Assembly: GCA_031272655.1 (NCBI GenBank)
Contig: JAISTJ010000009.1
Coordinates: forward strand, 1-17,886
Length of the DNA: 17,886 bases
Source of the DNA: Tannerella sp.
Lineage (GTDB): Bacteria; Bacteroidota; Bacteroidia; Bacteroidales; Tannerellaceae
Direction: 5' to 3'
Shown here: positions 1 through 17,886 of the stretch, one piece after another
Layout of the letters: each line of letters opens with the position of its first letter
Numbering within the stretch: the stretch's first letter is position 1
Translations under genes and position numbers: made by a program
Notes under the pieces: generated by a model
What the model was told of the DNA's origin: nothing
Databases searched by the model: none
The model's input: the letters and a program-made list of their open reading frames with translations, nothing else

Positions 1-117
1 AGTTACAAGTCTCAGGCGCTCGGATGGAAAATTTCTGGAGCCGGTGGTGGCGGGTATCTTGTCTTCGTCAGCGAGAAAGTTGTCCGCAACGGGATACGGA
101 TTAGAATTAAGAATTAA
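1..117 (+). CDS. GHMP-family sugar kinase, C-terminal fragment
   Basis: The window opens inside a gene read in frame 1; only the last 38 codons are present. The peptide contains GWKISGAGGGGYLVFV, which matches the glycine-rich C-terminal motif of GHMP kinases, the subgroup with sugar kinases such as heptose-7-phosphate kinase (HddA) and fucokinase-like enzymes. The substrate cannot be told from this fragment. Lying just before rmlA on the same strand, it fits a role in making activated sugars for surface polysaccharide. The last residues (IRIKN) and the stop codon are encoded by the start of a heptamer repeat array, so the native C-terminus may have been altered. Family assignment is fairly sure, exact function is not. 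Confidence 0.65.
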   Translation, partial: SYKSQALGWKISGAGGGGYLVFVSEKVVRNGIRIRIKN

Positions 118-160
118 GATTTTAGATTTCAGATTTTAGATTTCAGATTTCAGATTTTAG
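105..160. repeat. Heptamer tandem array between GHMP kinase and rmlA
   Basis: Eight consecutive 7-bp units: AATTAAG twice, then ATTTTAG, ATTTCAG, ATTTTAG, ATTTCAG, ATTTCAG, ATTTTAG. The array begins inside the last codons of the upstream gene, supplies its TAA stop (115-117) and ends 11 bases before the rmlA ATG. The AATTAAG unit recurs at 16416-16457, so this is a repeated sequence type and not chance AT-richness. Confidence 0.85.
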
Positions 161-171
161 AATTATATGAT

Positions 172-2496: not shown

Positions 2497-3729
2497 ATGG
2501 AATATAAACTGATAGTACTTGATATTGACGGCACGCTACTCAATAACGATAATATTATAACTTCCAGAATGCGAGCAACTTTGATAAAAGTGCAGCAGAT
2601 GGGTGTGAGGCTTGTACTGGCTTCGGGCAGGCCGCCTTACGGCATCATGCCGTTAGTCAAAGAACTCGACATGGATAAACACGACGGCTATATCCTGTCG
2701 TACAACGGCGGGCAAATAGTGAATGTATCCAAGAATGAAGTCGTTTTTGAGAAACGGATAGACCCGAGCATGATACCATACCTCGAAAAAAAGGCGCAAA
2801 AGGAAGGATTTGCGATATTTACCTACCGTGGCGACACAATCATAACCAACGATGTAACAAACAAGCACATCATACATGAGGCGGAACTGAATGCGATGAA
2901 GCTTGAGCAGGTAGAAAATTTTTCGGAAACGATTGATTTTGAGCCGGATAAATGTATGATCGTAAGCGACGACGAGGACGCCCTCGCCGAGCTTGAAAAT
3001 CACTGGAAGAAGCGTCTTGCTGGTGTGCTCGACGTTTTCCGCTCTGAGACATACTTCCTCGAAGTAGTGCCGCCATTCATTGATAAGGCTTACACGCTGG
3101 CTATCCTGCTTGAGAAACTTGGCGTTTCGACGGAGAATATCATTGCGATAGGCGACGGCGTGTGCGATGTGAACATGTTGCAGTTAGCCGGTCTTGGTAT
3201 CGCGATGGGCAATGCGCAGGATTCGGTCAAGGCATGCGCCGACCATATAACGCTTACCAACGAGGAAGACGGCGTCGCGGTCGCTATTGAAAATGCTGTT
3301 TTGTCGGAGATGCACCCTACGGCTATTCCGCTCGACAAGCTGAATGAAGCCGCCAAACATGCCCTGATGGGCAACCTCGGCATCCAATATACCTACGCCT
3401 CGGAAAACCGCATAGAGGCTACCATGCCCGTTGATGAGCGCACACGGCAACCTTTCGGCATACTGCACGGCGGGGCGACGCTTGCTCTTGCCGAGACGGT
3501 CGCGGGGCTTGGCTCGCTTGTGTTATGCAAGCCTGATGAAGTGATGGTTGGGATGCAGGTCAGCGGCAATCATCTTGCTTCGGCGCACGAAGGCGACACC
3601 GTCCGCGCCGTCGGCACAATCCTGCACAAAGGGCGTTCTTCCCATGTCTGGAACGTAGATATCTTTACCTCAACCGACAGGCTCGTTTCTACCGTCCGTA
3701 TCGTGAATAGTATCTTGAAAAAGAAGTGA
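2497..3729 (+). CDS. HAD phosphatase-hotdog thioesterase fusion (probable DHNA-CoA thioesterase)
   Basis: A 410-residue two-domain protein. Residues 1-270 are a Cof-type (IIB) HAD phosphatase: nucleophile and acid Asp9/Asp11 in DIDGTL, Ser43 in LASGR, Lys197 in FIDKAYTL, and GDGVCDVNML with Asp220 and Asp224. Residues about 280-410 are a PaaI-like hotdog thioesterase with HGG at 324-326 and catalytic-type Glu333 (HGGATLALAET). This architecture is known in Bacteroidota: as I recall, BF1314 (Bacteroides fragilis) and PG1653 (Porphyromonas gingivalis) were studied as menaquinone-pathway fusions hydrolysing 1,4-dihydroxy-2-naphthoyl-CoA. The role here is inferred from that family; no other men gene is in the window. 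The gene ends 20 bases from the convergent DUF5020 gene. Confidence 0.88.
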   Translation: MEYKLIVLDIDGTLLNNDNIITSRMRATLIKVQQMGVRLVLASGRPPYGIMPLVKELDMDKHDGYILSYNGGQIVNVSKNEVVFEKRIDPSMIPYLEKKAQKEGFAIFTYRGDTIITNDVTNKHIIHEAELNAMKLEQVENFSETIDFEPDKCMIVSDDEDALAELENHWKKRLAGVLDVFRSETYFLEVVPPFIDKAYTLAILLEKLGVSTENIIAIGDGVCDVNMLQLAGLGIAMGNAQDSVKACADHITLTNEEDGVAVAIENAVLSEMHPTAIPLDKLNEAAKHALMGNLGIQYTYASENRIEATMPVDERTRQPFGILHGGATLALAETVAGLGSLVLCKPDEVMVGMQVSGNHLASAHEGDTVRAVGTILHKGRSSHVWNVDIFTSTDRLVSTVRIVNSILKKK

Positions 3730-3749: not shown

Positions 3750-4532
3750 TTAGAAGTCGTAGCGAATGGCGGCTGTGGGGATAAAGTAAGCGCCTTTGCG
3801 GGCGGCAAAATTATATGAAATTTCGGTTTCCGAGCCTATGCTGAGATTGAAATCGTCCGGATAGCCTTGTATGCGGTTTAGATGAATCCATATTTGTGGT
3901 TCGGCAAGGAAAATATGCGTGCCGTGAAGGTTTTTTTCGCGCCACAAGTCGGCAAAACCGGTGAAAGTGAATACATCGTTGCCGAAATTGAGACGCCATA
4001 CGCCCGTAATCTGGAAGTTGTGAGGCTCGCCAAAGTCTTGCTTTTGGATGTATTTGTACATGGCGCTTAACGACCACCCGAAAGCCCTGCTGTTATACGA
4101 ATATGTTGCTCCGGACAGGTATGCGTTCCGGACGTAAGGCGTTCCGCCGTTGTACTCAAAGTGGAGGGATACCGGCGCTTTCCAAAATTTCAGTTCACGG
4201 GAAATTTCCCAGTATGCAGACGCTACGCCGGTTGATTTGTAGTCGAAATCGGTGAAGAAGAAAGTGCTGCCGAAGCGGTCAGGCTTGAACATCTCCACTG
4301 TGGAGGTGAAAAGCGGGCGTCCATGCAGGTCGTCGGGATAAAGGAATCTGCCGAGGTCATAGTGGAGTTGGATGTTTTGGGCTTGGATGGATGTCGCTGA
4401 TAATAAGAGGATTATTATTATGAGGGATTGCTTCGCTGCGCTCGCAATGACGGAAAAGGCGCTTGCAATGACGGGGCGGGCGCTCGCAATGACGGGCTTC
4501 GATAATTCTTTACGAAAGAAAATTTTGTTCAT
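3750..4532 (-). CDS. DUF5020-family outer-membrane protein with repeat-derived N-terminal insert
   Basis: A 260-residue protein matching the Bacteroidota DUF5020 family, presumed outer-membrane beta-barrels of unknown function: NIQLHYDLGRFLY, TSTVEMFKPDRFGSTFFFTDFDY, VASAYWEISRELKFWKAP and HNFQITGVWRLNFG are typical blocks, and the chain ends in an aromatic (YDF), as barrels do. The N-terminus is odd. Residues 1-12 (MNKIFFRKELSK) are followed by a repeat-encoded block at 13-36 (PVIASAR, PVIASAF, SVIASAAKQS) and only then the hydrophobic signal core LIIIILLLSATSIQAQ. No ATG, GTG or TTG codon lies in frame between the repeat and the signal core, so the repeat must be translated if the gene is expressed. 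The ATG at 4532 is preferred over the one at 4676, which lies inside the divergent coaX gene. Confidence 0.85.
   Translation of the reverse strand: MNKIFFRKELSKPVIASARPVIASAFSVIASAAKQSLIIIILLLSATSIQAQNIQLHYDLGRFLYPDDLHGRPLFTSTVEMFKPDRFGSTFFFTDFDYKSTGVASAYWEISRELKFWKAPVSLHFEYNGGTPYVRNAYLSGATYSYNSRAFGWSLSAMYKYIQKQDFGEPHNFQITGVWRLNFGNDVFTFTGFADLWREKNLHGTHIFLAEPQIWIHLNRIQGYPDDFNLSIGSETEISYNFAARKGAYFIPTAAIRYDF
4425..4495. repeat. Dispersed element with 21-bp tandem units inside the DUF5020 gene
   Basis: On the plus strand: head GGATTGCTTCG (4425-4435), a short spacer, then units at 4443-4463, 4464-4484 and the core of a third at 4485-4495. Each unit is 21 bp and begins with YGCAATGACGG. The head and the first core form a small inverted repeat (ATTGC/GCAAT). 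The same head and core occur at 11172-11313 within rlmN. In the minus-strand gene the units read as the heptapeptide VIASAxx, so copy changes keep the frame. Confidence 0.88.
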
Positions 4533-11151: not shown

Positions 11152-12327
11152 ATGGAAAAGAAAAATGATATGGATTGCTTCGTGCCTCGCAATGACGGGA
11201 AAAAGGAACGCAATGACGGAAAAAAGGAACATAATGGCGGAAAAGAAGGACGCATTGACGGGAAAGAGGATTGCAATGAAGGGGTAGGGGAGCGCGATGG
11301 CGGGAAGCGGGAGGCTCTTGCGGGGATGACTTTGGGGGAACTTAAGGCTGTTGTCGGCAGTCTTTCGATGCCGCCATATACGGCCGGACAGATAGCTGAT
11401 TGGTTGTATAAGAAGAAGATACGCACGATTGACGAGATGACAAATATCTCGGCAAAGAACCGTTTGCTTTTGGCTTCACAGTTTGAGGTTGGGTTGAAAC
11501 CGCCTGCCGGGAAAAAAGAATCGGCCGATGGCACTGTCAAATATCTTTTTGCGGCAGGCGGCGGCGATGACAAGTTCGTTGAAACGGTTTTTATTCCCGC
11601 CAAAGAACGTTCTACGCTTTGTGTCTCGTCGCAGATCGGCTGCAAGATGAAATGCGCGTTTTGCATGACTGGTCGGCAGGGTTTTAAAGGCAATCTTACT
11701 TCAAACGGGATACTGAACCAGATCCTCTCAGCGCCCGAATGTAACGAACTGACGAACGTTGTCTTTATGGGGATGGGTGAACCGCTTGATAACTACGGCG
11801 AAGTGCTCAAAACGCTTGAGATACTGACCGCCCCTTATGGCTTCGGATGGAGTCCTAAAAGGATAACTGTCTCAACGATAGGTATTTTGCCTTCACTTAA
11901 ACGCTTCCTTGACGAGAGTTCGTGCAATCTTGCCGTCAGCCTCCATTCGCCTTACCATGATGAACGGTTGTCGCTGATGCCCGCCGAGAAAGCTTTTCCG
12001 ATAGATGCCGTGATTGATTTGTTGCATGAGTATGATTTTAGCCACCAGAGGCGTGTTTCTTTTGAATATATTATGTTTGAGGGAGTTAACGACAGCGAAC
12101 AGCATGCCAAAGATCTTGCGCGGATGCTTAGGGGGATAGAATGTAGGGTGAATATCATCCGTTTCCATTATATAAAAGGCATCAATCTGCACAGCTGCGG
12201 CGAGCGCAAGATGGAATTTTTCCGCGACACCCTCAACGCATTGGGCATAACTGCAACTATCCGCACCTCAAGAGGCGAAGACATCCTCGCCGCCTGCGGG
12301 ATGCTTTCAACCGGCAAACGTCAATAA
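11152..12327 (+). CDS. rlmN: 23S rRNA/tRNA adenine C2-methyltransferase RlmN with repeat-derived N-terminal extension
   Basis: A radical-SAM enzyme that methylates C2 of A2503 in 23S rRNA and A37 in some tRNAs; cytosolic. The [4Fe-4S] motif is CKMKCAFC (Cys164, Cys168, Cys171). The two methyl-transfer cysteines are visible as Cys157 (STLCVSSQ) and Cys382 (GEDILAACGML). FMGMGEP and the N-terminal helical domain MTLGELKAVVGSL also fit. At 391 residues it is about 45-50 longer than usual: between MEKK and EALAGMTL lies an insert containing six imperfect heptapeptides of type RNDGKKE, encoded by 21-bp repeats. Without the insert the protein would be about 342 residues, the normal size. An alternative ATG at 11326 would start at MTLGELK and skip the insert. 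The 3' end overlaps the convergent hepT by 21 bases. Confidence 0.94.
   Translation: MEKKNDMDCFVPRNDGKKERNDGKKEHNGGKEGRIDGKEDCNEGVGERDGGKREALAGMTLGELKAVVGSLSMPPYTAGQIADWLYKKKIRTIDEMTNISAKNRLLLASQFEVGLKPPAGKKESADGTVKYLFAAGGGDDKFVETVFIPAKERSTLCVSSQIGCKMKCAFCMTGRQGFKGNLTSNGILNQILSAPECNELTNVVFMGMGEPLDNYGEVLKTLEILTAPYGFGWSPKRITVSTIGILPSLKRFLDESSCNLAVSLHSPYHDERLSLMPAEKAFPIDAVIDLLHEYDFSHQRRVSFEYIMFEGVNDSEQHAKDLARMLRGIECRVNIIRFHYIKGINLHSCGERKMEFFRDTLNALGITATIRTSRGEDILAACGMLSTGKRQ
11172..11313. repeat. Dispersed element with six 21-bp tandem units inside rlmN
   Basis: Head GGATTGCTTCG (11172-11182), spacer TGCCT, then six 21-bp units starting at 11188, 11209, 11230, 11251, 11272 and 11293. Units 1 and 2 differ by one base (CGCAATGACGG followed by GAAAAAGGAA or AAAAAAGGAA); units 3 to 6 drift progressively. 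In the rlmN frame they encode RNDGKKE, RNDGKKE, HNGGKEG, RIDGKED, CNEGVGE and RDGGKRE. Head and core match the element at 4425-4495. Confidence 0.9.
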
Positions 12328-12651
12328 ACATTGTGCTTCTGTCTTCAATACAGGCAAATGATTAACTACAATACTCCACAGAATATCGGGGGCAAGAGAA
12401 TCATAGCCGTGTATCACATAATTGCGGGTATCCACAATTTTTCGGGCATTTGTTATCGCTATTGAAGCATCGTTTTTCAGTATTCGGTTAACGGCTTCGC
12501 CAATGATTTCAATATTCCTTTCAACGGCACGCCTAATAAGTAAATCATTGATAAATATGTCATAACGTTTTGGAATTCGTTCAAAGAACGCATCAATTTC
12601 TTCGATTGCTATTAATATATCTTCAAGCCATTTCTTTATCCGGTCATCCAT
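12307..12651 (-). CDS. hepT: HepT-type toxin (DUF86, HEPN RNase)
   Basis: A 114-residue all-helical protein of the DUF86/HepT family, the toxin of MntA-HepT (type VII) pairs; known members cleave RNA. The catalytic RX4HXY motif is intact: Arg76, His81 and Tyr83 in RNYVIHGY. RRAVERNIEIIGEAVNRIL is the typical preceding helix. In characterised systems the antitoxin transfers AMP groups to the motif tyrosine. The gene overlaps mntA by 8 bases, with the ATG at 12651 inside the end of mntA, so the two are translationally coupled with antitoxin first. Its 3' end overlaps the rlmN stop region by 21 bases tail to tail. Function in this organism is inferred from the family. Confidence 0.88.
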   Translation of the reverse strand: MDDRIKKWLEDILIAIEEIDAFFERIPKRYDIFINDLLIRRAVERNIEIIGEAVNRILKNDASIAITNARKIVDTRNYVIHGYDSLAPDILWSIVVNHLPVLKTEAQCLLTFAG

Positions 12652-12943
12652 ATATCAAAGTTTTAGTGTTTTCTATGTTTTTTCTTAGATATGAGTTGCG
12701 TACAGGATGGTCTTCCATAAGATCTACTGCTCTTCCTAAGACGTTTTCCAAAGAATATTTGAAATCAAAATAGTTTATAAAGCGGTCAGTAACAGCATTT
12801 TCATCAAAATGGACAATCAAATCAACATCGCTCTGTTCATTGAACTTGTCGGTCAAAACAGAGCCGAACGCAAACAACCGACTGACGTTGTACTTGCGGC
12901 ACAAGTCGGCAATCTGACTGTAATATGAACTTAAATAATCCAT
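12644..12943 (-). CDS. mntA: MntA-type nucleotidyltransferase antitoxin
   Basis: A 99-residue minimal nucleotidyltransferase. The family signature GSX10DXD is complete: Gly27-Ser28 in AFGSVL, ten residues, then Asp39 and Asp41 in DVDLIV. As the antitoxin partner of HepT, it would inactivate the toxin by AMPylating its RX4HXY tyrosine. The C-terminal part (LENVLGRAVDLMEDHPVRNSYLRKNI) is normal for the family and includes a conserved VDL strand that usually carries a third acidic residue. It is first in the two-gene minus-strand unit. A TAATTTTG -7 element lies about 20 bases upstream of the start codon. Confidence 0.88.
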   Translation of the reverse strand: MDYLSSYYSQIADLCRKYNVSRLFAFGSVLTDKFNEQSDVDLIVHFDENAVTDRFINYFDFKYSLENVLGRAVDLMEDHPVRNSYLRKNIENTKTLIYG

Positions 12944-13099: not shown

Positions 13100-14140
13100 A
13101 TGAAACAGACTGTAATTTTTTTATCGGCTATGATGATTTTGGCAGGGCTAAATTCCTGTAACCAAGGCATTTCCGTAGTACGGGCATCCGGTCTGGCATA
13201 CGAAGTGTGTGTGGTCATGGAACAGTCCCTCTGGGACAACGAACTTGGTGAAACGGTCATGGAAGAGCTTACTTCACCGGTACCTTACCTGTTGCAGGAT
13301 GAGCCGTCAATGAGGGTTACGCGCGTTACCCCCGACCAGTTTGACGGATTGTTGAAATATATGCGTAACATTCTTATTATCAACGTTGATAATAACAAAT
13401 ACACAAAAGTTTCGATGCACAGCGAACATGATAAATGGGCTGATGGTCAGACAGTTGTGTATATCAATTCGCCGAGTGAGTTGATGCTTGACGGGTATCT
13501 TACTGAAAACGAACGCATGCTTGTCAATTATTTCAATAACGAAGAAATGAAGCGGGCGAGCGCCTATTTGTTGCGGTCGTACAGCCCGTTAGTGATGGAC
13601 AAGGTGAAAGATAAATTCGGCATCTCGCTGAACGCGCCGAATGACATCACATTATTCAAGGAAGGCGACGACTGCCTGTGGTTTTCAAACGACGCCGCGC
13701 TTGGACGCTGCGACCTGCTTGTTTACAGCTTCCCGTTCACTGACAAGAATACCTTCACTCTCGACTATCTTGTAGCCAAGCGCGACAGCGTTGCTAAGAA
13801 GCTTGTACCCGGCTCATTTGCAGGCTCTTACATGGCGACCGAGAAGCGGGTAGTAGATTTTTTCCCTTCAACGCTCAACAACAAGTATTGCGGCATCCTG
13901 CGCGGATGGTGGAAGATGGAAGGCGGCGACATGATGGGCGGACCGTTTGTCAGTTACGCGCGTGTGGACGAGGCTAACAAGCGGGTAATAGTAACGGAAG
14001 GGTTTGTGTATGAGCCAAATAAAGAGAAACGCAAGTATATCCGCCGTCTCGAAGCGGCGTTGCGGACTGCGTTGCTGCCTGACGAGCTGTCGGCCGCTCC
14101 TGCAAGCCCGACCGCTGTAATCCCGAACTTAAAAGAATAA
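13100..14140 (+). CDS. DUF4837-family lipoprotein
   Basis: A 346-residue protein resembling the DUF4837 family of Bacteroidota, function unknown. The N-terminus MKQTVIFLSAMMILAGLNSC is a lipoprotein signal with the likely lipidated Cys20 (LNSC), so the protein should be anchored in a membrane facing the periplasm. Recognisable blocks are YEVCVVMEQSLWDNELGE, QDEPSMRVTRV, the RNILIINVD strand, a central DCLWFSND segment, and GSYMATEKRVVDFFPS with ILRGWWKMEGGDMMGGPFVSYA. The last motif is the best-conserved part of the family as I remember it. Only 9 bases separate it from pdxA, so they are surely co-transcribed. In related Bacteroides I recall rlmN, this gene and pdxA in series; here a toxin-antitoxin pair lies between rlmN and it. 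Confidence 0.82.
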   Translation: MKQTVIFLSAMMILAGLNSCNQGISVVRASGLAYEVCVVMEQSLWDNELGETVMEELTSPVPYLLQDEPSMRVTRVTPDQFDGLLKYMRNILIINVDNNKYTKVSMHSEHDKWADGQTVVYINSPSELMLDGYLTENERMLVNYFNNEEMKRASAYLLRSYSPLVMDKVKDKFGISLNAPNDITLFKEGDDCLWFSNDAALGRCDLLVYSFPFTDKNTFTLDYLVAKRDSVAKKLVPGSFAGSYMATEKRVVDFFPSTLNNKYCGILRGWWKMEGGDMMGGPFVSYARVDEANKRVIVTEGFVYEPNKEKRKYIRRLEAALRTALLPDELSAAPASPTAVIPNLKE

Positions 14141-14149
14141 TTAAATATA

Positions 14150-15253
14150 ATGGAAGAAAAACTGATAAAAATTGGCATAACGCAGGGCGACTGCAACGGA
14201 ATAGGCTATGAGATAATACTTAAAACCTTCTCCGACAGCCGGATGTTTGAACTTTGTACACCGGTTTTGTACGGCTCGACGAAAATCACTTCTTACTACA
14301 ACAAAATACTTGAATCGGCCGAATGTGAACCTGTCCCGACACATCTTGTTGCGGATGCGCAAAGGGCTGTTAATGAGAAACTTAATGTTTATCGCTGTGT
14401 GGATGACAATCTCATTGTGGAACCCGGCAAACTGTCTCCAGAAGCCGGAAAGGCAGCGTTTTTATCGCTTGAAGCTGCTGTGGCAGACCTGAAAAAAGGT
14501 TCTATAGACGGCATACTGACTGCGCCCATCAGCAAACATTCCATTCACAGTGAGGAATTTAACTTCCCCGGCCATACCGAATATCTTGAAAGTAAGTTTG
14601 GGGACAGTTCTCCGAAATCACTTATGGTATTGATAAACAGTATGTTACGTATAGCATTTGTTACGGGGCATATTCCATTGGGAGAAGTCAAAAAACATAT
14701 CACCAAGAAAGCTATTTTTGATAAGTTGCTGATTTTCAGTAGATCGTTACATCAGGATTTCGCTATTCCGCGTCCGCGGATAGCTGTATTGTCGCTTAAT
14801 CCTCATGCCGGTGATAAGGGGCTTATCGGCGACGAGGAGGCAACAATCATCAGTCCGGCTATTGAAGAGGCTTCCGGCAAGGGTGTGCTTGCGTTTGGGC
14901 CTTATGCCGCAGACGGTTTTTTCGGTTCGCGCACGTACCTTCAGTTTGACGGCATCCTTGCTATGTATCACGACCAAGGGCTTGCACCGTTCAAGGCGCT
15001 TGATATGGACGGCGGAGTGAACTTTACAGCTGGGCTGCCGGTGATAAGGACTTCGCCTGCGCATGGCACGGCTTTTGACATCGCCGGAAAAAATCTCGCT
15101 AACGAAAACTCTTTCCGTCAGGCGCTTTATACACTGATTGACATCAGCCGTAACCGCAAGTCATATCGTGAGGCGACCGCCAATCCGCTCACCAAACAGT
15201 ATTACGACCGTAGCGGCGACAGCGAAAAACTCGACCTCACCAAAGAAGAATAA
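14150..15253 (+). CDS. pdxA: 4-hydroxythreonine-4-phosphate dehydrogenase PdxA
   Basis: Oxidises 4-phosphohydroxy-L-threonine in the DXP-dependent route to pyridoxal 5'-phosphate; cytosolic, NAD- and metal-dependent. The 367-residue length is somewhat longer than the roughly 330 of E. coli PdxA, a common feature in Bacteroidota. The start GITQGDCNGIGYEI, substrate-binding GHTEYL (His142, Thr143) and metal-binding histidines His174 (TGHIPLGEV), His219 (SLNPHAGDKGLIGDEE) and His274 (YHDQGLAPFKAL) are present, as is TSPAHGTAFDIAGK. Its gene lies 9 bases after DUF4837 and 16 bases before the SDR-cytidylyltransferase fusion. PdxA paralogues with other substrates exist, but this one has every canonical motif. 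Confidence 0.95.
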   Translation: MEEKLIKIGITQGDCNGIGYEIILKTFSDSRMFELCTPVLYGSTKITSYYNKILESAECEPVPTHLVADAQRAVNEKLNVYRCVDDNLIVEPGKLSPEAGKAAFLSLEAAVADLKKGSIDGILTAPISKHSIHSEEFNFPGHTEYLESKFGDSSPKSLMVLINSMLRIAFVTGHIPLGEVKKHITKKAIFDKLLIFSRSLHQDFAIPRPRIAVLSLNPHAGDKGLIGDEEATIISPAIEEASGKGVLAFGPYAADGFFGSRTYLQFDGILAMYHDQGLAPFKALDMDGGVNFTAGLPVIRTSPAHGTAFDIAGKNLANENSFRQALYTLIDISRNRKSYREATANPLTKQYYDRSGDSEKLDLTKEE

Positions 15254-15269
15254 TTTGAAGAACAATAAT

Positions 15270-16421
15270 ATGAAAATCAAAGCATTAATTGTTGGCGGAA
15301 GCTCCGGTCTCGGTCTCGCTTTCGCCCACAAACTTCTGTCGCCGGCGTACGACTGCGAGCGGTTGTACGTTCTCGACCGCGTTGAGCCGCAAATAGCAGA
15401 CGAGCGCATCGTCTTCGTGCGGCATAACCTCCTTGCCGACGAGATGGAGGTCTTCGACCGCTTCAAGGATATTAACACGCTGATTATCACCGCCGGTTTC
15501 GGAAGGGTAGCGCCTTTTGACGAACTCCTTGATATAGAGATAGTTAACAGTTTTAAGGTGAACACCCTCGCAACTGTCAGAATAATAAAGCATTTCTACG
15601 AGCGGATGCGTTCGGCGGACGATTTCTATACATTAGTGATGGGAAGCGTCAGCGGCATGATGTCGTCGCCGCTCTTTGCCGTTTATGGCGCTACAAAAGC
15701 GGCTGTGGACATGTTCGCCGAGAGCGTTAATACCGAGCTTGAGTTGCTGCCTACAGCTAACCGCATCCTGAACGTCGCTCCCGGCTCGCTTAAAGGTACA
15801 AGTTTCAACGGCGGTAAAACTTCTTTAGAAACCCTTTCCGAGCTGACCGACACGCTGTTAGAACGCCTCTTCAAACGCGAGACGCTATATATTCCTCAGT
15901 ATGAGGAAGTTTACAAAAACGTCCTGCATAAATATCGCACCGACCCGCACCAATCGTCGGTGGACAGTTACAACTATAAACTCGCTTCGGGCAGAATCAA
16001 CCACCGCCCGCAGGTCAAAATAGGCTACCTGAGCGGCACTTTCGACCTCTTTCATATCGGGCACCTCAACCTGCTACGCCGCGCCAAAGATTACTGCGAC
16101 TACCTCGTCGTCGGCGTTCACGAGAGCGGCGCACGCAAGGGTAAAGAGACATTTATCCCGTTTGAAGAGCGTCTCGACATCGTCCGGAGCGTCCGCTACG
16201 TTGACCGCGTCATGAAGTCGTACCTTGAAGACGCCGACGCATGGCAGGAAGTGCAGTACGACTACCTCTTCGTAGGCAGCGACTACAAGGGCAGTGAGCG
16301 CTTCGCCCGCTACGAAGAGTTCTTCCGCGATAAAGACGTGAAAATCATCTACTTCCCCTACACGCAAGGCACCAGCAGTACGCAGATACGACGGGCGATA
16401 GAGGGAGGGGCGAAAAATTAA
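15270..16421 (+). CDS. SDR oxidoreductase-cytidylyltransferase fusion protein
   Basis: A 383-residue two-domain protein. Residues 1-240 are a short-chain dehydrogenase: cofactor motif GGSSGLG (9-15), TAGFG in place of NNAG, Ser126/Ser128, and Tyr139-x3-Lys143 in YGATK, so the domain looks catalytically intact. Residues about 250-383 are a TagD-like cytidylyltransferase (glycerol-3-phosphate or ethanolamine-phosphate type): GTFDLFHIGH with HxGH at 262-265, FIPFEERLDIVRSVRYVD, and TQGTSSTQIRRAI (from 365) as the RTxGxSTT equivalent. It may reduce a keto- or aldo-phosphate to a polyol phosphate and then make the CDP derivative. Haemophilus Bcs1 is a functional analogue with unrelated domain order. 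The ATG at 15270 is chosen because the SDR motif begins there; the stop codon lies in the first unit of a heptamer array. Confidence 0.85.
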   Translation: MKIKALIVGGSSGLGLAFAHKLLSPAYDCERLYVLDRVEPQIADERIVFVRHNLLADEMEVFDRFKDINTLIITAGFGRVAPFDELLDIEIVNSFKVNTLATVRIIKHFYERMRSADDFYTLVMGSVSGMMSSPLFAVYGATKAAVDMFAESVNTELELLPTANRILNVAPGSLKGTSFNGGKTSLETLSELTDTLLERLFKRETLYIPQYEEVYKNVLHKYRTDPHQSSVDSYNYKLASGRINHRPQVKIGYLSGTFDLFHIGHLNLLRRAKDYCDYLVVGVHESGARKGKETFIPFEERLDIVRSVRYVDRVMKSYLEDADAWQEVQYDYLFVGSDYKGSERFARYEEFFRDKDVKIIYFPYTQGTSSTQIRRAIEGGAKN

Positions 16422-16457
16422 GAATTAAGAATTAAGAATTAAGAATTAAGAATTAAG
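16416..16457. repeat. Six perfect AATTAAG heptamers at the fusion gene stop codon
   Basis: Six identical 7-bp units run from 16416 to 16457. The TAA of the upstream gene (16419-16421) is inside the first unit. Since 7 is not a multiple of 3, the array presents TAA in every frame on both strands. The same unit occurs at 105-118. Confidence 0.92.
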
Positions 16458-16469
16458 AGTTTGATGTTT

Positions 16470-16497
16470 TTTTATCTTTTATTTTTTATCTTTTATT
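16470..16497. repeat. T-rich heptamer array before the CDP-alcohol transferase gene
   Basis: Four 7-bp units alternate TTTTATC, TTTTATT, TTTTATC, TTTTATT and end seven bases before the ATG. They contain TATCTTTT, one base from the TAnnTTTG promoter element, with a TTTG at 16460-16463. Confidence 0.8.
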
Positions 16498-16504
16498 TTA
16501 CTGA

Positions 16505-17380
16505 ATGGATACAGAGTACGAGAAATCATTAAAGTCGTTAGAGACAGAGAATTACTGGGACAGGAACTACTTTCGCCCATTAGGTTTCCGCATCGCAAAG
16601 GCGTTGCGTAACACCGGCATTACCCCTAACGCCGTAACTATCATTTCAATCTTTATAGGTGCGGCAGCCGGACCGCTGTTCTATCCAGAGAATTTGGCGC
16701 TCAACGCATTAGGTGTAGCGTTGCTGTTCATAGCTAACATCTTAGACTGTGTTGACGGTCAGTTAGCCCGCCTTACCGGTATCAAGTCCGAGATAGGGCG
16801 CATCCTCGACGGTCTCGCCGGCGATATCTGGTTTGCCCTGATTTACACCTTCTTAGCCCTGCGCCTCAATAGGCAGTTCGACACGAACCTCTTCTTCATC
16901 CCCGCCGTTCTGTCCGCCCTCTCGCACCTCCTGCAAGCCAACATCACCGATTACTACAAGACAGTCCACCTCTTCTTCATCAATCGCGAGAAAGGCGCCG
17001 AGTTTCAAAACTGCGCAGAAGTGCGCCGCAAATACGCCGCCATGAAGCCCGGCATAGGTAAAGTCCTGTTTTACTTTTATTTATGGTACACAACACTGCA
17101 GGAAACCGTAACGCCAAAACTCCAAAAACTGCTTCAAACGCTAAAAGAGAAATACGGCGACGACATACCCGAAGACCTGCGCTTGAGCTTCCGCCGCAGC
17201 AGTTCGCGCCTCATGAAGCATTGCATTGATATGATGACCTTCAACTGGCGCTCGCTTGTCCTATATCTCTCGGTATTAACCGGTTACGTCTGGTTTGACT
17301 TCTTTTTTGAAATAATAATTCTAAACATAATACTCTGTATATCAATCTTTAAGCACGAAAAAATTTGCAAAAAGTTATGA
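16505..17380 (+). CDS. CDP-alcohol phosphatidyltransferase family protein
   Basis: A 291-residue integral membrane enzyme that would transfer a phospho-alcohol or phosphatidyl group from a CDP donor. The motif DxxDGxxAR is at 81-89 (DCVDGQLAR), followed by eight residues, Gly98 and Asp102. The last aspartate is at 107 where the consensus DGx2ARx8Gx3Dx3D expects it at 106 (Gly here). Several hydrophobic spans lie at about 40-80, 107-120, 130-145 and near the C-terminus (VLYLSVLTGYVWFDFFFEIIILNIILCISIF). It follows the fusion gene after an 83-base repeat-rich gap and its stop overlaps the ATG of the next gene (ATGA). The substrate is unknown; phosphatidylinositol-phosphate-like, phosphatidylglycerol-like or Kennedy-type chemistry are all possible. 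Confidence 0.88.
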   Translation: MDTEYEKSLKSLETENYWDRNYFRPLGFRIAKALRNTGITPNAVTIISIFIGAAAGPLFYPENLALNALGVALLFIANILDCVDGQLARLTGIKSEIGRILDGLAGDIWFALIYTFLALRLNRQFDTNLFFIPAVLSALSHLLQANITDYYKTVHLFFINREKGAEFQNCAEVRRKYAAMKPGIGKVLFYFYLWYTTLQETVTPKLQKLLQTLKEKYGDDIPEDLRLSFRRSSSRLMKHCIDMMTFNWRSLVLYLSVLTGYVWFDFFFEIIILNIILCISIFKHEKICKKL

Positions 17381-17886
17381 AACGAACGGTTTTGGAAATA
17401 GAAGATATTCAGCGACAGGCGCCAATACTAAACAACAGGCTTGGTCATTGGCTTTTAGAAAAGGTGTTCCCCCTGTTAGATATTGATAAGGTCAATCGTA
17501 TTCACGGCAATCACTGCGACTTGCGCGGCGCGGACTTCACGTCTGCTATGCTTGCCGATCCGCTGATGGATGTAAAATACAACGTCCATAACCCCGAAAT
17601 ACTGCAACAACTGCCGCAGGGCGCTTTCATCACGGTTTCAAACCATCCGATAGGCTCGCTCGACGGTATTATTCTGATAGACCTTTTCGCCCGCCTGAGA
17701 CCCGATTTCAAGGTGATGGTCAATAAGATACTCGCTCACATCACAGCTATGGGCGATAATTTCATTTCTATAACACATAGAACATCTGATAATAAGGAAG
17801 ATAACAGCAATGTAAACATCATTCGCTTAGCATTAAGTCATTTGAAAGAAGGTCATCCGCTCGGATTTTTTCCGGCAGGCTCTATG
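17377..17886 (+). CDS. Lysophospholipid acyltransferase family protein, N-terminal part
   Basis: The gene is open for 170 codons to the window edge. It contains the acyltransferase motif region TVSNHPIGSLDG (His-x5-Asp as in the hemolysin/OlsA-like subgroup, instead of the H-x4-D of PlsC) and, near the edge, LGFFPAGS, matching the FPxG block of motif III. The N-terminus (VLEIEDIQRQAPILNNRLG and VNRIHGNHCDLRGADFTSAML) resembles a Bacteroidota acyltransferase family, some of which serve aminolipid or phospholipid synthesis. Its ATG overlaps the stop of the preceding gene by four bases, indicating translational coupling and a shared pathway. The catalytic C-terminal half is outside the window. 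Confidence 0.82.
   Translation, partial: MKRTVLEIEDIQRQAPILNNRLGHWLLEKVFPLLDIDKVNRIHGNHCDLRGADFTSAMLADPLMDVKYNVHNPEILQQLPQGAFITVSNHPIGSLDGIILIDLFARLRPDFKVMVNKILAHITAMGDNFISITHRTSDNKEDNSNVNIIRLALSHLKEGHPLGFFPAGSM

What the first reader, a model, noticed from the sequence alone, without database searches (positions are those of the whole stretch)
15270..17886. Candidate lipid or polyol head-group pathway: SDR-cytidylyltransferase fusion, CDP-alcohol transferase and coupled acyltransferase
Seen: one protein joins an intact-looking SDR (GGSSGLG, YGATK) to a TagD-like cytidylyltransferase (HIGH, TQGTSST); the next genes are a CDP-alcohol transferase and an acyltransferase joined by an ATGA overlap. 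Known: cytidylyltransferases of this type make CDP-glycerol, CDP-ethanolamine or similar; Haemophilus Bcs1 couples reduction and CDP-ribitol formation with different domains. Inferred: the fusion reduces a sugar or ketone phosphate and activates it as a CDP-polyol, which the transferase attaches to a lipid acceptor partly made by the acyltransferase. Such a Kennedy-type route would be unusual in bacteria. No inositol-3-phosphate synthase is visible, which weakens a simple inositol-lipid explanation.
Basis: partly seen in the sequence, partly recalled or inferred. Interest (0 to 1): 0.7.

Follow-up and report, generated by a model that had tools for sequence, protein, structure and literature searches.

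The report
Capsule-type enzyme in a lipid operon
A gut-type bacterium appears to build an unidentified membrane lipid with a small gene set in which the two enzymes that prepare the lipid's head group were swapped for one fused enzyme otherwise seen in surface-sugar gene clusters, which hints at what that head group is.

Summary
In detail: an intact-looking SDR-cytidylyltransferase fusion (15270-16421), a CDP-alcohol transferase (16505-17380) and, by ATGA overlap, an acyltransferase cut off by the contig end. In the same genus this slot (pdxA > cytidylyltransferase > SDR > CDP-alcohol transferase > acyltransferase) holds two separate, distantly related genes in 14 of 14 loci examined. The fusion was found in none of 40 other congeners, and neither native gene in the 72.5% complete window genome. 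The fusion's own family (23 in-frame fusions among 80 loci) lies mostly near LicD- or CDP-glycerol-type phosphotransferases; relatives of the native genes do so too in three loci. Two distantly related SDR+cytidylyltransferase modules thus serve both settings. Best reading: both make a CDP-polyol (glycerol- or ribitol-like) that the transferase moves to a lipid, Kennedy-style. An operon of this make-up is already in print for Parabacteroides as an unidentified 'alternative lipid' cluster helping bile-salt growth (PMC11300592). New here: the module swap, and a testable link to substituted phosphoglycerol dihydroceramide, which among the gut species tested only P. distasonis and P. merdae made (PMC3037954). 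Chemistry and acceptor are inferred.

The parts
15270..15980 (+). SDR domain of the fusion (GGSSGLG, S126, Y139, K143): proposed NAD(P)H-dependent reductase making a polyol phosphate
   Evidence: AlphaFold model of the fusion, mean pLDDT 88.1; the 50 PDB fold matches shown are SDR-type enzymes
16005..16421 (+). TagD-like cytidylyltransferase domain of the fusion (HIGH, TQGTSST): proposed CDP-polyol synthesis
   Evidence: in the clade of natural fusions in the tree
16416..16458 (.). heptamer array AATTAAG x6 between the fusion and transferase genes
16505..17380 (+). CDP-alcohol phosphotransferase, 291 aa, type II clade; motif DCVDGQLARLTGIKSEIGRILDGLAGD
17377..17886 (+). acyltransferase (nearest GlsA/OlsF-type), start overlaps the previous stop (ATGA), 3' end cut by the contig
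14150..15253 (+). pdxA: upstream synteny anchor of the operon
13100..14140 (+). DUF4837 gene: upstream synteny anchor

Best explanation
The locus is a variant of a lipid head-group operon found across its family. The SDR domain reduces a keto- or aldehyde phosphate to a polyol phosphate, and the fused TagD-like domain activates it with CTP to a CDP-polyol, most likely CDP-glycerol or a CDP-pentitol such as CDP-ribitol. The CDP-alcohol transferase moves the polyol phosphate to a lipid alcohol, diacylglycerol or dihydroceramide, as in the Kennedy pathway. The acyltransferase then adds a fatty acyl ester. In this lineage the ancestral pair of separate genes (cytidylyltransferase then SDR) was replaced in place by a horizontally acquired SDR-cytidylyltransferase fusion of the kind seen in capsule- or teichoic-like glycan loci. 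Shown by sequence: gene content, synteny, displacement, conserved residues, use of both modules in lipid-type and glycan-type settings. Inferred: every enzymatic step, the polyol, the lipid acceptor, the order of acylation.
For: Order pdxA > cytidylyltransferase > SDR > CDP-alcohol transferase > acyltransferase in 14 of 14 genus loci read in full and in P. distasonis. In 23 of 24 congeners a transferase at 56-70% identity is present (one, G306, only in part), and in those 23 a separate cytidylyltransferase lies on the same strand just upstream (coordinates compared by eye). The fusion is in 0 of 40 other congeners. The native cytidylyltransferase is in 3 of 3 other genomes of the family in the order sample but not in G000 at E 1e-35; the native SDR is in 4 of 4 control genomes but not in G000 at E 1e-20. 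The one other, weak cytidylyltransferase-like hit in G000 is a GHMP-kinase-type fusion, not the native gene. Trees: the window's transferase lies in a clade of 16 rows, all of its genus (99/96); its cytidylyltransferase lies in the fusion clade, apart from the native one (100/99). Glycan setting of the fusion: LicD- or Glyphos_transf-like genes within 3 kb of 16 of 23 fused loci (query proteins confirmed by Pfam), plus L083 by Pfam. Mixing: native-type cytidylyltransferase + fusion-type SDR + Glyphos_transf (L106); native-type pair + Glyphos_transf (L225); native-type cytidylyltransferase + another SDR + LicD (L226). The fusion near a CDP-alcohol transferase in a Bacillus (L083), and the non-fused SDR of its family beside one in Segatella baroniae (L118). 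Nearest solved fold of the transferase: AF2299. Bile-salt benefit of the published operon in B. theta (PMC11300592). Serine palmitoyltransferase in G000 over its cut-off.
Against: No activity, substrate or product is shown. The fourth aspartate of the CDP-alcohol transferase motif is glycine in the window and in 51 of 56 other family rows, with Asp (40) or Asn (11) one residue later; 4 rows have Asp and 1 Ser there (a few genes are counted twice), so the chemistry may differ from textbook members. If the polyol were ordinary sn-glycerol-3-phosphate, no SDR should be needed (general knowledge). LicD/TagF-like hits are also near 34 of 57 non-fused relatives, so that setting is typical of the SDR family, not of fusions alone. 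6 of 23 fused loci, some on short contigs, show neither with the queries used. In L224 the native-type pair and a distant transferase (31%) occur without the acyltransferase. The cytidylyltransferase tree carries the tool's warnings of long branches and an unsettled bootstrap. One incomplete MAG; the acyltransferase is incomplete.
Confidence: 0.66

Rival explanations
1. The operon specifically makes substituted phosphoglycerol dihydroceramide (SubPG-DHC): CDP-glycerol + dihydroceramide gives PG-DHC, and the acyltransferase esterifies it.
For: Of over 90 intestinal species only P. distasonis and P. merdae made PG-DHC, with little or none in the unsubstituted two-chain form (PMC3037954). P. distasonis has the operon; the published operon was enriched from P. 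johnsonii and P. merdae libraries and is absent in B. theta (PMC11300592). Glyphos_transf, named for CDP-glycerol transfer, accompanies the same modules in glycan loci. G000 has a serine palmitoyltransferase.
Against: The correlation rests on few named species. P. gingivalis and T. forsythia also make PG-DHC and could not be checked by name here. The SDR is not needed for ordinary glycerol-3-phosphate. The position of the extra ester was not read in any held paper.
Confidence: 0.25
2. The transferase makes a soluble or glycan-linked polyol phosphodiester, like archaeal di-inositol phosphate synthases, and the acyltransferase is unrelated.
For: The transferase also matches IPCT-DIPPS models weakly (31.5 bits, cut-off 580; 4mnd), both cytidylyltransferase modules serve glycan loci elsewhere, and L224 lacks the acyltransferase.
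Against: The acyltransferase follows in 14 of 14 genus loci and in the f3 genomes, there behind an LPG-synthase-like membrane gene; the published operon protects against bile salts.
Confidence: 0.12
3. The SDR is not part of head-group synthesis but reduces a lipid ketone (3-ketosphinganine or 3-oxoacyl), so only the cytidylyltransferase makes the donor.
For: The native SDR scores best with YmfI/FabG-type models, below their cut-offs.
Against: Both SDR types sit beside or fused to a cytidylyltransferase, also in loci where no acyltransferase of this kind lies within 6 kb (0 of 80 loci have one), and a fused SDR-cytidylyltransferase replaced both genes together.
Confidence: 0.1
4. It is an inositol-lipid cluster of the Bacteroides type.
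For: The transferase is a roughly 40% paralogue of the one in the alternative inositol cluster.
Against: No NTP transferase or MIPS relative in the window; both operons coexist in P. distasonis, and 15 of 24 congeners have both transferases; type II forms its own clade (100/100).
Confidence: 0.04
5. Assembly or binning chimera.
For: Single MAG, 72.5% complete; the heptamer array at the 3' junction is a possible assembly weak point.
Against: Both flanks (pdxA, transferase) are genus-like and the insert lies exactly in the operon slot; neither native gene is found elsewhere in the assembly.
Confidence: 0.04

Closest known systems
Parabacteroides 'alternative lipid' operon (HMPREF1077_RS03620-03635; PMC11300592)
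   Same: same four functions by the paper's annotation (its sequences were not compared here); in P. distasonis the operon has the same pdxA/DUF4837/rlmN synteny and a transferase 60% identical to the window's
   Different: cytidylyltransferase and SDR are separate, in the other order and of other subfamilies; here one fusion replaces both
Alternative inositol-lipid cluster of Bacteroidota (PMC9246714)
   Same: homologous CDP-alcohol transferase (about 40%) fed by a nucleotidyltransferase; Kennedy-like logic
   Different: NTP_transferase-fold enzyme, ATP-grasp-like gene, HAD and often MIPS instead of TagD-like enzyme, SDR and acyltransferase
Haemophilus Bcs1/Acs1 CDP-ribitol synthase (recalled; no sequence compared)
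   Same: reductase and cytidylyltransferase in one protein
   Different: recalled as an IspD-like domain then SDR; here SDR then TagD-like (PF01467) domain
TagD / TarD glycerol-3-phosphate cytidylyltransferase
   Same: same fold family; the best solved relatives include 1coz
   Different: scores 77.4 bits against the TIGR01518 cut-off of 165.4; fused to an SDR
CpgD, Caulobacter phosphoglycerate cytidylyltransferase for a sphingolipid head group (PMC12275187)
   Same: CDP-activated three-carbon head-group donor (proposed) for a bacterial sphingolipid
   Different: COG1213-type enzyme, said to have no homology to TagD; makes CDP-glycerate; different partner genes

Membership tests
Parabacteroides alternative-lipid operon | CDP-alcohol transferase and acyltransferase of the same groups as in P. 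distasonis, adjacent, after pdxA | tested here: met
Parabacteroides alternative-lipid operon | the native cytidylyltransferase and SDR genes in front of the transferase | tested here: not met
   31-39% identity to congeners' cytidylyltransferases, other clade, fused; native SDR not found in the assembly
Parabacteroides alternative-lipid operon | benefit in bile salts | not testable with these tools
   shown for the published operon in B. theta (PMC11300592, section 15 read)
Kennedy-type CDP-alcohol pathway | cytidylyltransferase that forms a CDP-alcohol | tested here: inconclusive
   domain and conserved residues present; activity not testable
Kennedy-type CDP-alcohol pathway | transfer from CDP-alcohol to diacylglycerol or ceramide | not testable with these tools
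   no substrate data
CDP-alcohol phosphotransferase superfamily | PF01066 over its cut-off and AF2299-like fold | tested here: met
   43.3 bits vs 22; 4o6m top fold hit, E 1.6e-4
CDP-alcohol phosphotransferase superfamily | complete motif DxxDGxxAR...GxxxDxxxD with the fourth Asp | tested here: not met
   Gly at that position, Asp one residue later; 51 of 56 other rows also have Gly there
Alternative inositol-lipid cluster | NTP transferase, HAD and MIPS neighbours | tested here: not met
   no relative in the window at E 1e-3; present as a separate cluster in relatives
Bcs1-type CDP-ribitol synthase | IspD-like cytidylyltransferase N-terminal to SDR (recalled) | tested here: not met
   SDR first, CTP_transf_like (PF01467) second
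TagD equivalog TIGR01518 | score over curated cut-off | tested here: not met
   77.4 vs 165.4 bits
GlsA equivalog NF053697 | score over curated cut-off | tested here: not met
   window fragment 67.6 and full-length orthologue L060 138.2 vs 260 bits

The most novel reading that the evidence does not exclude
The operon is the missing biosynthetic route of substituted phosphoglycerol dihydroceramide, a TLR2-active sphingolipid of Parabacteroides, Tannerella and Porphyromonas. It would work Kennedy-style from CDP-glycerol, with the SDR setting a particular glycerol phosphate (for example the sn-1 enantiomer). The window's lineage would then have rebuilt the donor step with a capsule-type CDP-polyol synthase, either keeping the same head group or changing it.
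Probability: 0.25. Interest if true: 0.8.

Novelty: new variant of a known kind. Interest (0 to 1): 0.6.

Why it matters
A bile-protective lipid operon of common gut bacteria has been reported without a product. The natural replacement of its two donor enzymes by a module seen in surface-glycan loci, and the presence of both kinds of module beside CDP-glycerol-type phosphotransferases, narrows the head group to a CDP-polyol that such transferases accept. Together with the published species distribution of PG-DHC, this makes the product directly testable by one deletion and one lipid extract. It would also support a second Kennedy-like route in Bacteroidota besides the proposed CDP-inositol one.

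Tried and rejected
Rejected: inositol lipid (separate coexisting cluster); a fusion conserved within the genus (0 of 40 other congeners); Bcs1 membership (domain order and fold differ). The substrate could not be fixed: PDB sequence and fold searches put the SDR near 17-beta-HSD and other broad SDRs, and none of the 50 fold rows shown covers the cytidylyltransferase domain alone. Codon and GC figures gave no clear foreign signature apart from a higher GC3 in the cytidylyltransferase part (0.735). Paper searches: no held paper has both 'phosphoglycerol dihydroceramide' and 'CDP-alcohol'; the five-term search found 0; (at least 3 of 4 terms) listed 4 papers, of which only PMC11300592 has all four terms. 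PMC8791184 was seen in a listing only. Dropped before counts: 99 of the 179 relatives found were not kept by the tool; L082, L085 and L128 were fused but left out of the model alignment A5 (20 of 23 used). The cytidylyltransferase tree used 18 chosen native-type rows. The transferase tree took one hit per locus of at least 230 columns and holds 3 duplicate rows; the genus is split in it, 8 other congener rows grouping with P. distasonis and the other family genomes (98/85). Full gene order was read for 14 of the 40 other congeners; for 23 only coordinates of two genes were compared. L132, flagged with a CDP-alcohol transferase-like hit within 6 kb, was not followed beyond.
Full report
What is there. 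The window is a whole contig (G000:C192) of a 72.5% complete assembly. At its 3' end lie a 383-aa SDR-cytidylyltransferase fusion (15270-16421), a 291-aa CDP-alcohol transferase (16505-17380) and an acyltransferase that starts in the previous stop codon (ATGA at 17377) and is cut off by the contig end. Pfam finds each domain over its cut-off. Aligned with 23 other natural fusions, the window departs from columns uniform in the others at three places only. The fusion model is confident (mean pLDDT 88.1, lower in the last 20 residues), and the PDB fold matches shown are SDR-type enzymes. The transferase model (87.3) is nearest AF2299, a CDP-alcohol phosphotransferase.

What relatives have in the same place. 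In the genus, a separate TagD-like cytidylyltransferase and a separate SDR sit between pdxA and the transferase: pdxA > cytidylyltransferase > SDR > CDP-alcohol transferase > acyltransferase in 14 of 14 loci read in full. In 23 of 24 congeners searched a transferase at 56-70% identity was found (in part only in G306); in all 23 a separate cytidylyltransferase lies just upstream on the same strand (coordinates compared). The exception, G314, has only a 38% paralogue. None of the 40 other congeners has the fusion: 38 match essentially only its second domain, at 31-39% identity, and 2 (G314, G330) do not match. The order sample shows the native cytidylyltransferase in 11 of 295 genomes, among them 3 of 3 other genomes of the family, but not in G000 at E 1e-35. 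The native SDR was found in 4 of 4 control genomes and not in G000 at E 1e-20. The only other cytidylyltransferase-like hit in G000 (C135) is joined to a GHMP-kinase-like part and is not matched by the native gene at E 1e-3. The window's transferase groups in a clade of 16 rows, all of its genus (99/96), whereas its cytidylyltransferase groups with the fusions, apart from the native clade (100/99; long branches and an unsettled bootstrap flagged by the tool). The simplest account is that a horizontally acquired fusion replaced both native genes in place.

Where the two modules occur elsewhere. A scan with the SDR alignment found 179 relatives, of which 80 were kept; 23 are in-frame SDR-cytidylyltransferase fusions from Bacteroidales, Clostridia and one Bacillus. 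LicD- or Glyphos_transf-like genes lie within 3 kb of 16 of the 23 fused and 34 of the 57 non-fused members (the query proteins are LicD and Glyphos_transf by Pfam), and in L083 by Pfam. The modules mix. L106 has a native-type cytidylyltransferase (72%), a fusion-type SDR (47%) and a Glyphos_transf gene (31.6 bits, cut-off 22.1); L225 has a native-type pair with Glyphos_transf (172.4 bits); L226 has a native-type cytidylyltransferase, a more distant SDR (26%) and LicD; L227 has parts of both native-type genes before a LicD-like hit. Bacillus sp. FJAT-29790 (L083) carries the fusion with two Glyphos_transf genes, a CDP-alcohol transferase and a HAD gene downstream; Segatella baroniae (L118) carries a cytidylyltransferase-Gfo/Idh fusion, a non-fused SDR of this family and a CDP-alcohol transferase. 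Gemmobacter aquarius has a related but separate SDR (34%) and cytidylyltransferase (65%) before LicD in an O-antigen-type locus. Both kinds of module are thus found with a glycan phosphotransferase or with a CDP-alcohol transferase, as expected if both make a CDP-polyol.

The transferase family. Type II is a clade of its own (100/100). The others (type I) lie with an NTP transferase in 14 of the 20 phylum regions examined, one of which, L186, is type II; this is the setting that PMC9246714 proposed as an alternative, Kennedy-like inositol-lipid route (passages read). Type II lies with the cytidylyltransferase-SDR pair in family f1 and, with an extra LPG-synthase-like membrane gene, in f3. Both types coexist in P. 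distasonis, and 15 of 24 congeners have both transferases, so their products probably differ. Most of the family lacks the usual fourth aspartate of the motif: glycine stands there in the window and in 51 of 56 other rows, with Asp (40) or Asn (11) one residue later. This departure from the family signature should be tested before assuming standard chemistry.

What is in print. PMC11300592 (section 15 read; passages) reports a four-gene operon of this make-up in Parabacteroides, absent from B. [quoted passage not shown] theta. No product is given in what I read; the link to the operon studied here rests on the annotations and on P. distasonis, not on a comparison of the paper's sequences. PMC3037954 (passages) reports that of over 90 intestinal species only P. 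distasonis and P. merdae made PG-DHC, with little or no unsubstituted (two-chain) form. P. distasonis has the operon, and PMC11300592 found it in P. johnsonii and P. merdae libraries. G000 encodes a serine palmitoyltransferase over its cut-off (676.5 vs 640 bits). This points to substituted PG-DHC as a candidate product, but the species overlap is small and causation is untested. PMC12275187 (abstract and passages) shows that a cytidylyltransferase needed for a bacterial sphingolipid head group makes CDP-glycerate, which its authors hypothesize to be the donor.

Mechanism and certainty. Shown: gene content, order, displacement, conserved residues, module mixing. Inferred: the SDR reduces a sugar phosphate; the second domain makes the CDP-polyol; the transferase attaches it to diacylglycerol or dihydroceramide; the GlsA/OlsF-like enzyme (138.2 bits to GlsA for the full-length orthologue L060, cut-off 260) adds an ester. 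Glycerol and ribitol are the leading polyols because Glyphos_transf enzymes use CDP-glycerol or CDP-ribitol (general knowledge); the SDR argues for a polyol phosphate that central metabolism does not already supply.

Noticed in passing
window 12307-12943 (-): HepT-like / nucleotidyltransferase gene pair, the make-up of an MntA-HepT-type toxin-antitoxin module (recalled), between rlmN and the DUF4837 gene, which are neighbours in P. distasonis; its GC is 0.36-0.37 against 0.44-0.52 for the other upstream genes.
   Followed up: partly
window 11167-11327: A 21-bp repeat (CGCAATGACGGGAAAAAGGAA-like) runs through the 5' end of the rlmN reading frame, and a similar one is at 4438-4496; the true start of rlmN may lie downstream of it.
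   Followed up: partly
window 103-165, 16416-16458 and 16470-16496: Short heptamer arrays (AGATTTA, AATTAAG, TTTTATC) in intergenic stretches.
   Followed up: no
window 2497-3729: One protein joins a HAD phosphatase (Hydrolase_3) to a 4HBT thioesterase domain.
   Followed up: no
window 16505-17380 and its family: The CDP-alcohol transferase motif lacks the canonical fourth Asp: Gly in the window and 51 of 56 other rows, with Asp or Asn one residue later.
   Followed up: partly
L060:7495-7977, L070:8760-9215, L182:7777-8244: These native cytidylyltransferases show HxNH where the window's fusion has HIGH (HxGH) (L182).
   Followed up: no
L118:7649-10514 (Segatella baroniae B14): Cytidylyltransferase-Gfo/Idh fusion, SDR and a CDP-alcohol transferase in a row, apparently inside a glycan locus: a possible third donor module for such transferases.
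   Followed up: partly
L072:7584-8441 and L071:6337-7203: A roughly 285-aa gene between the NTP transferase and the CDP-alcohol transferase recurs in all 14 NTP-transferase regions; Pfam gives no family, and the L071 copy has weak ATP-grasp similarity.
   Followed up: partly
L017:3995-5128 (G000, another contig): A cytidylyltransferase-like domain joined to a GHMP-kinase-like C-terminal part in the same genome.
   Followed up: partly
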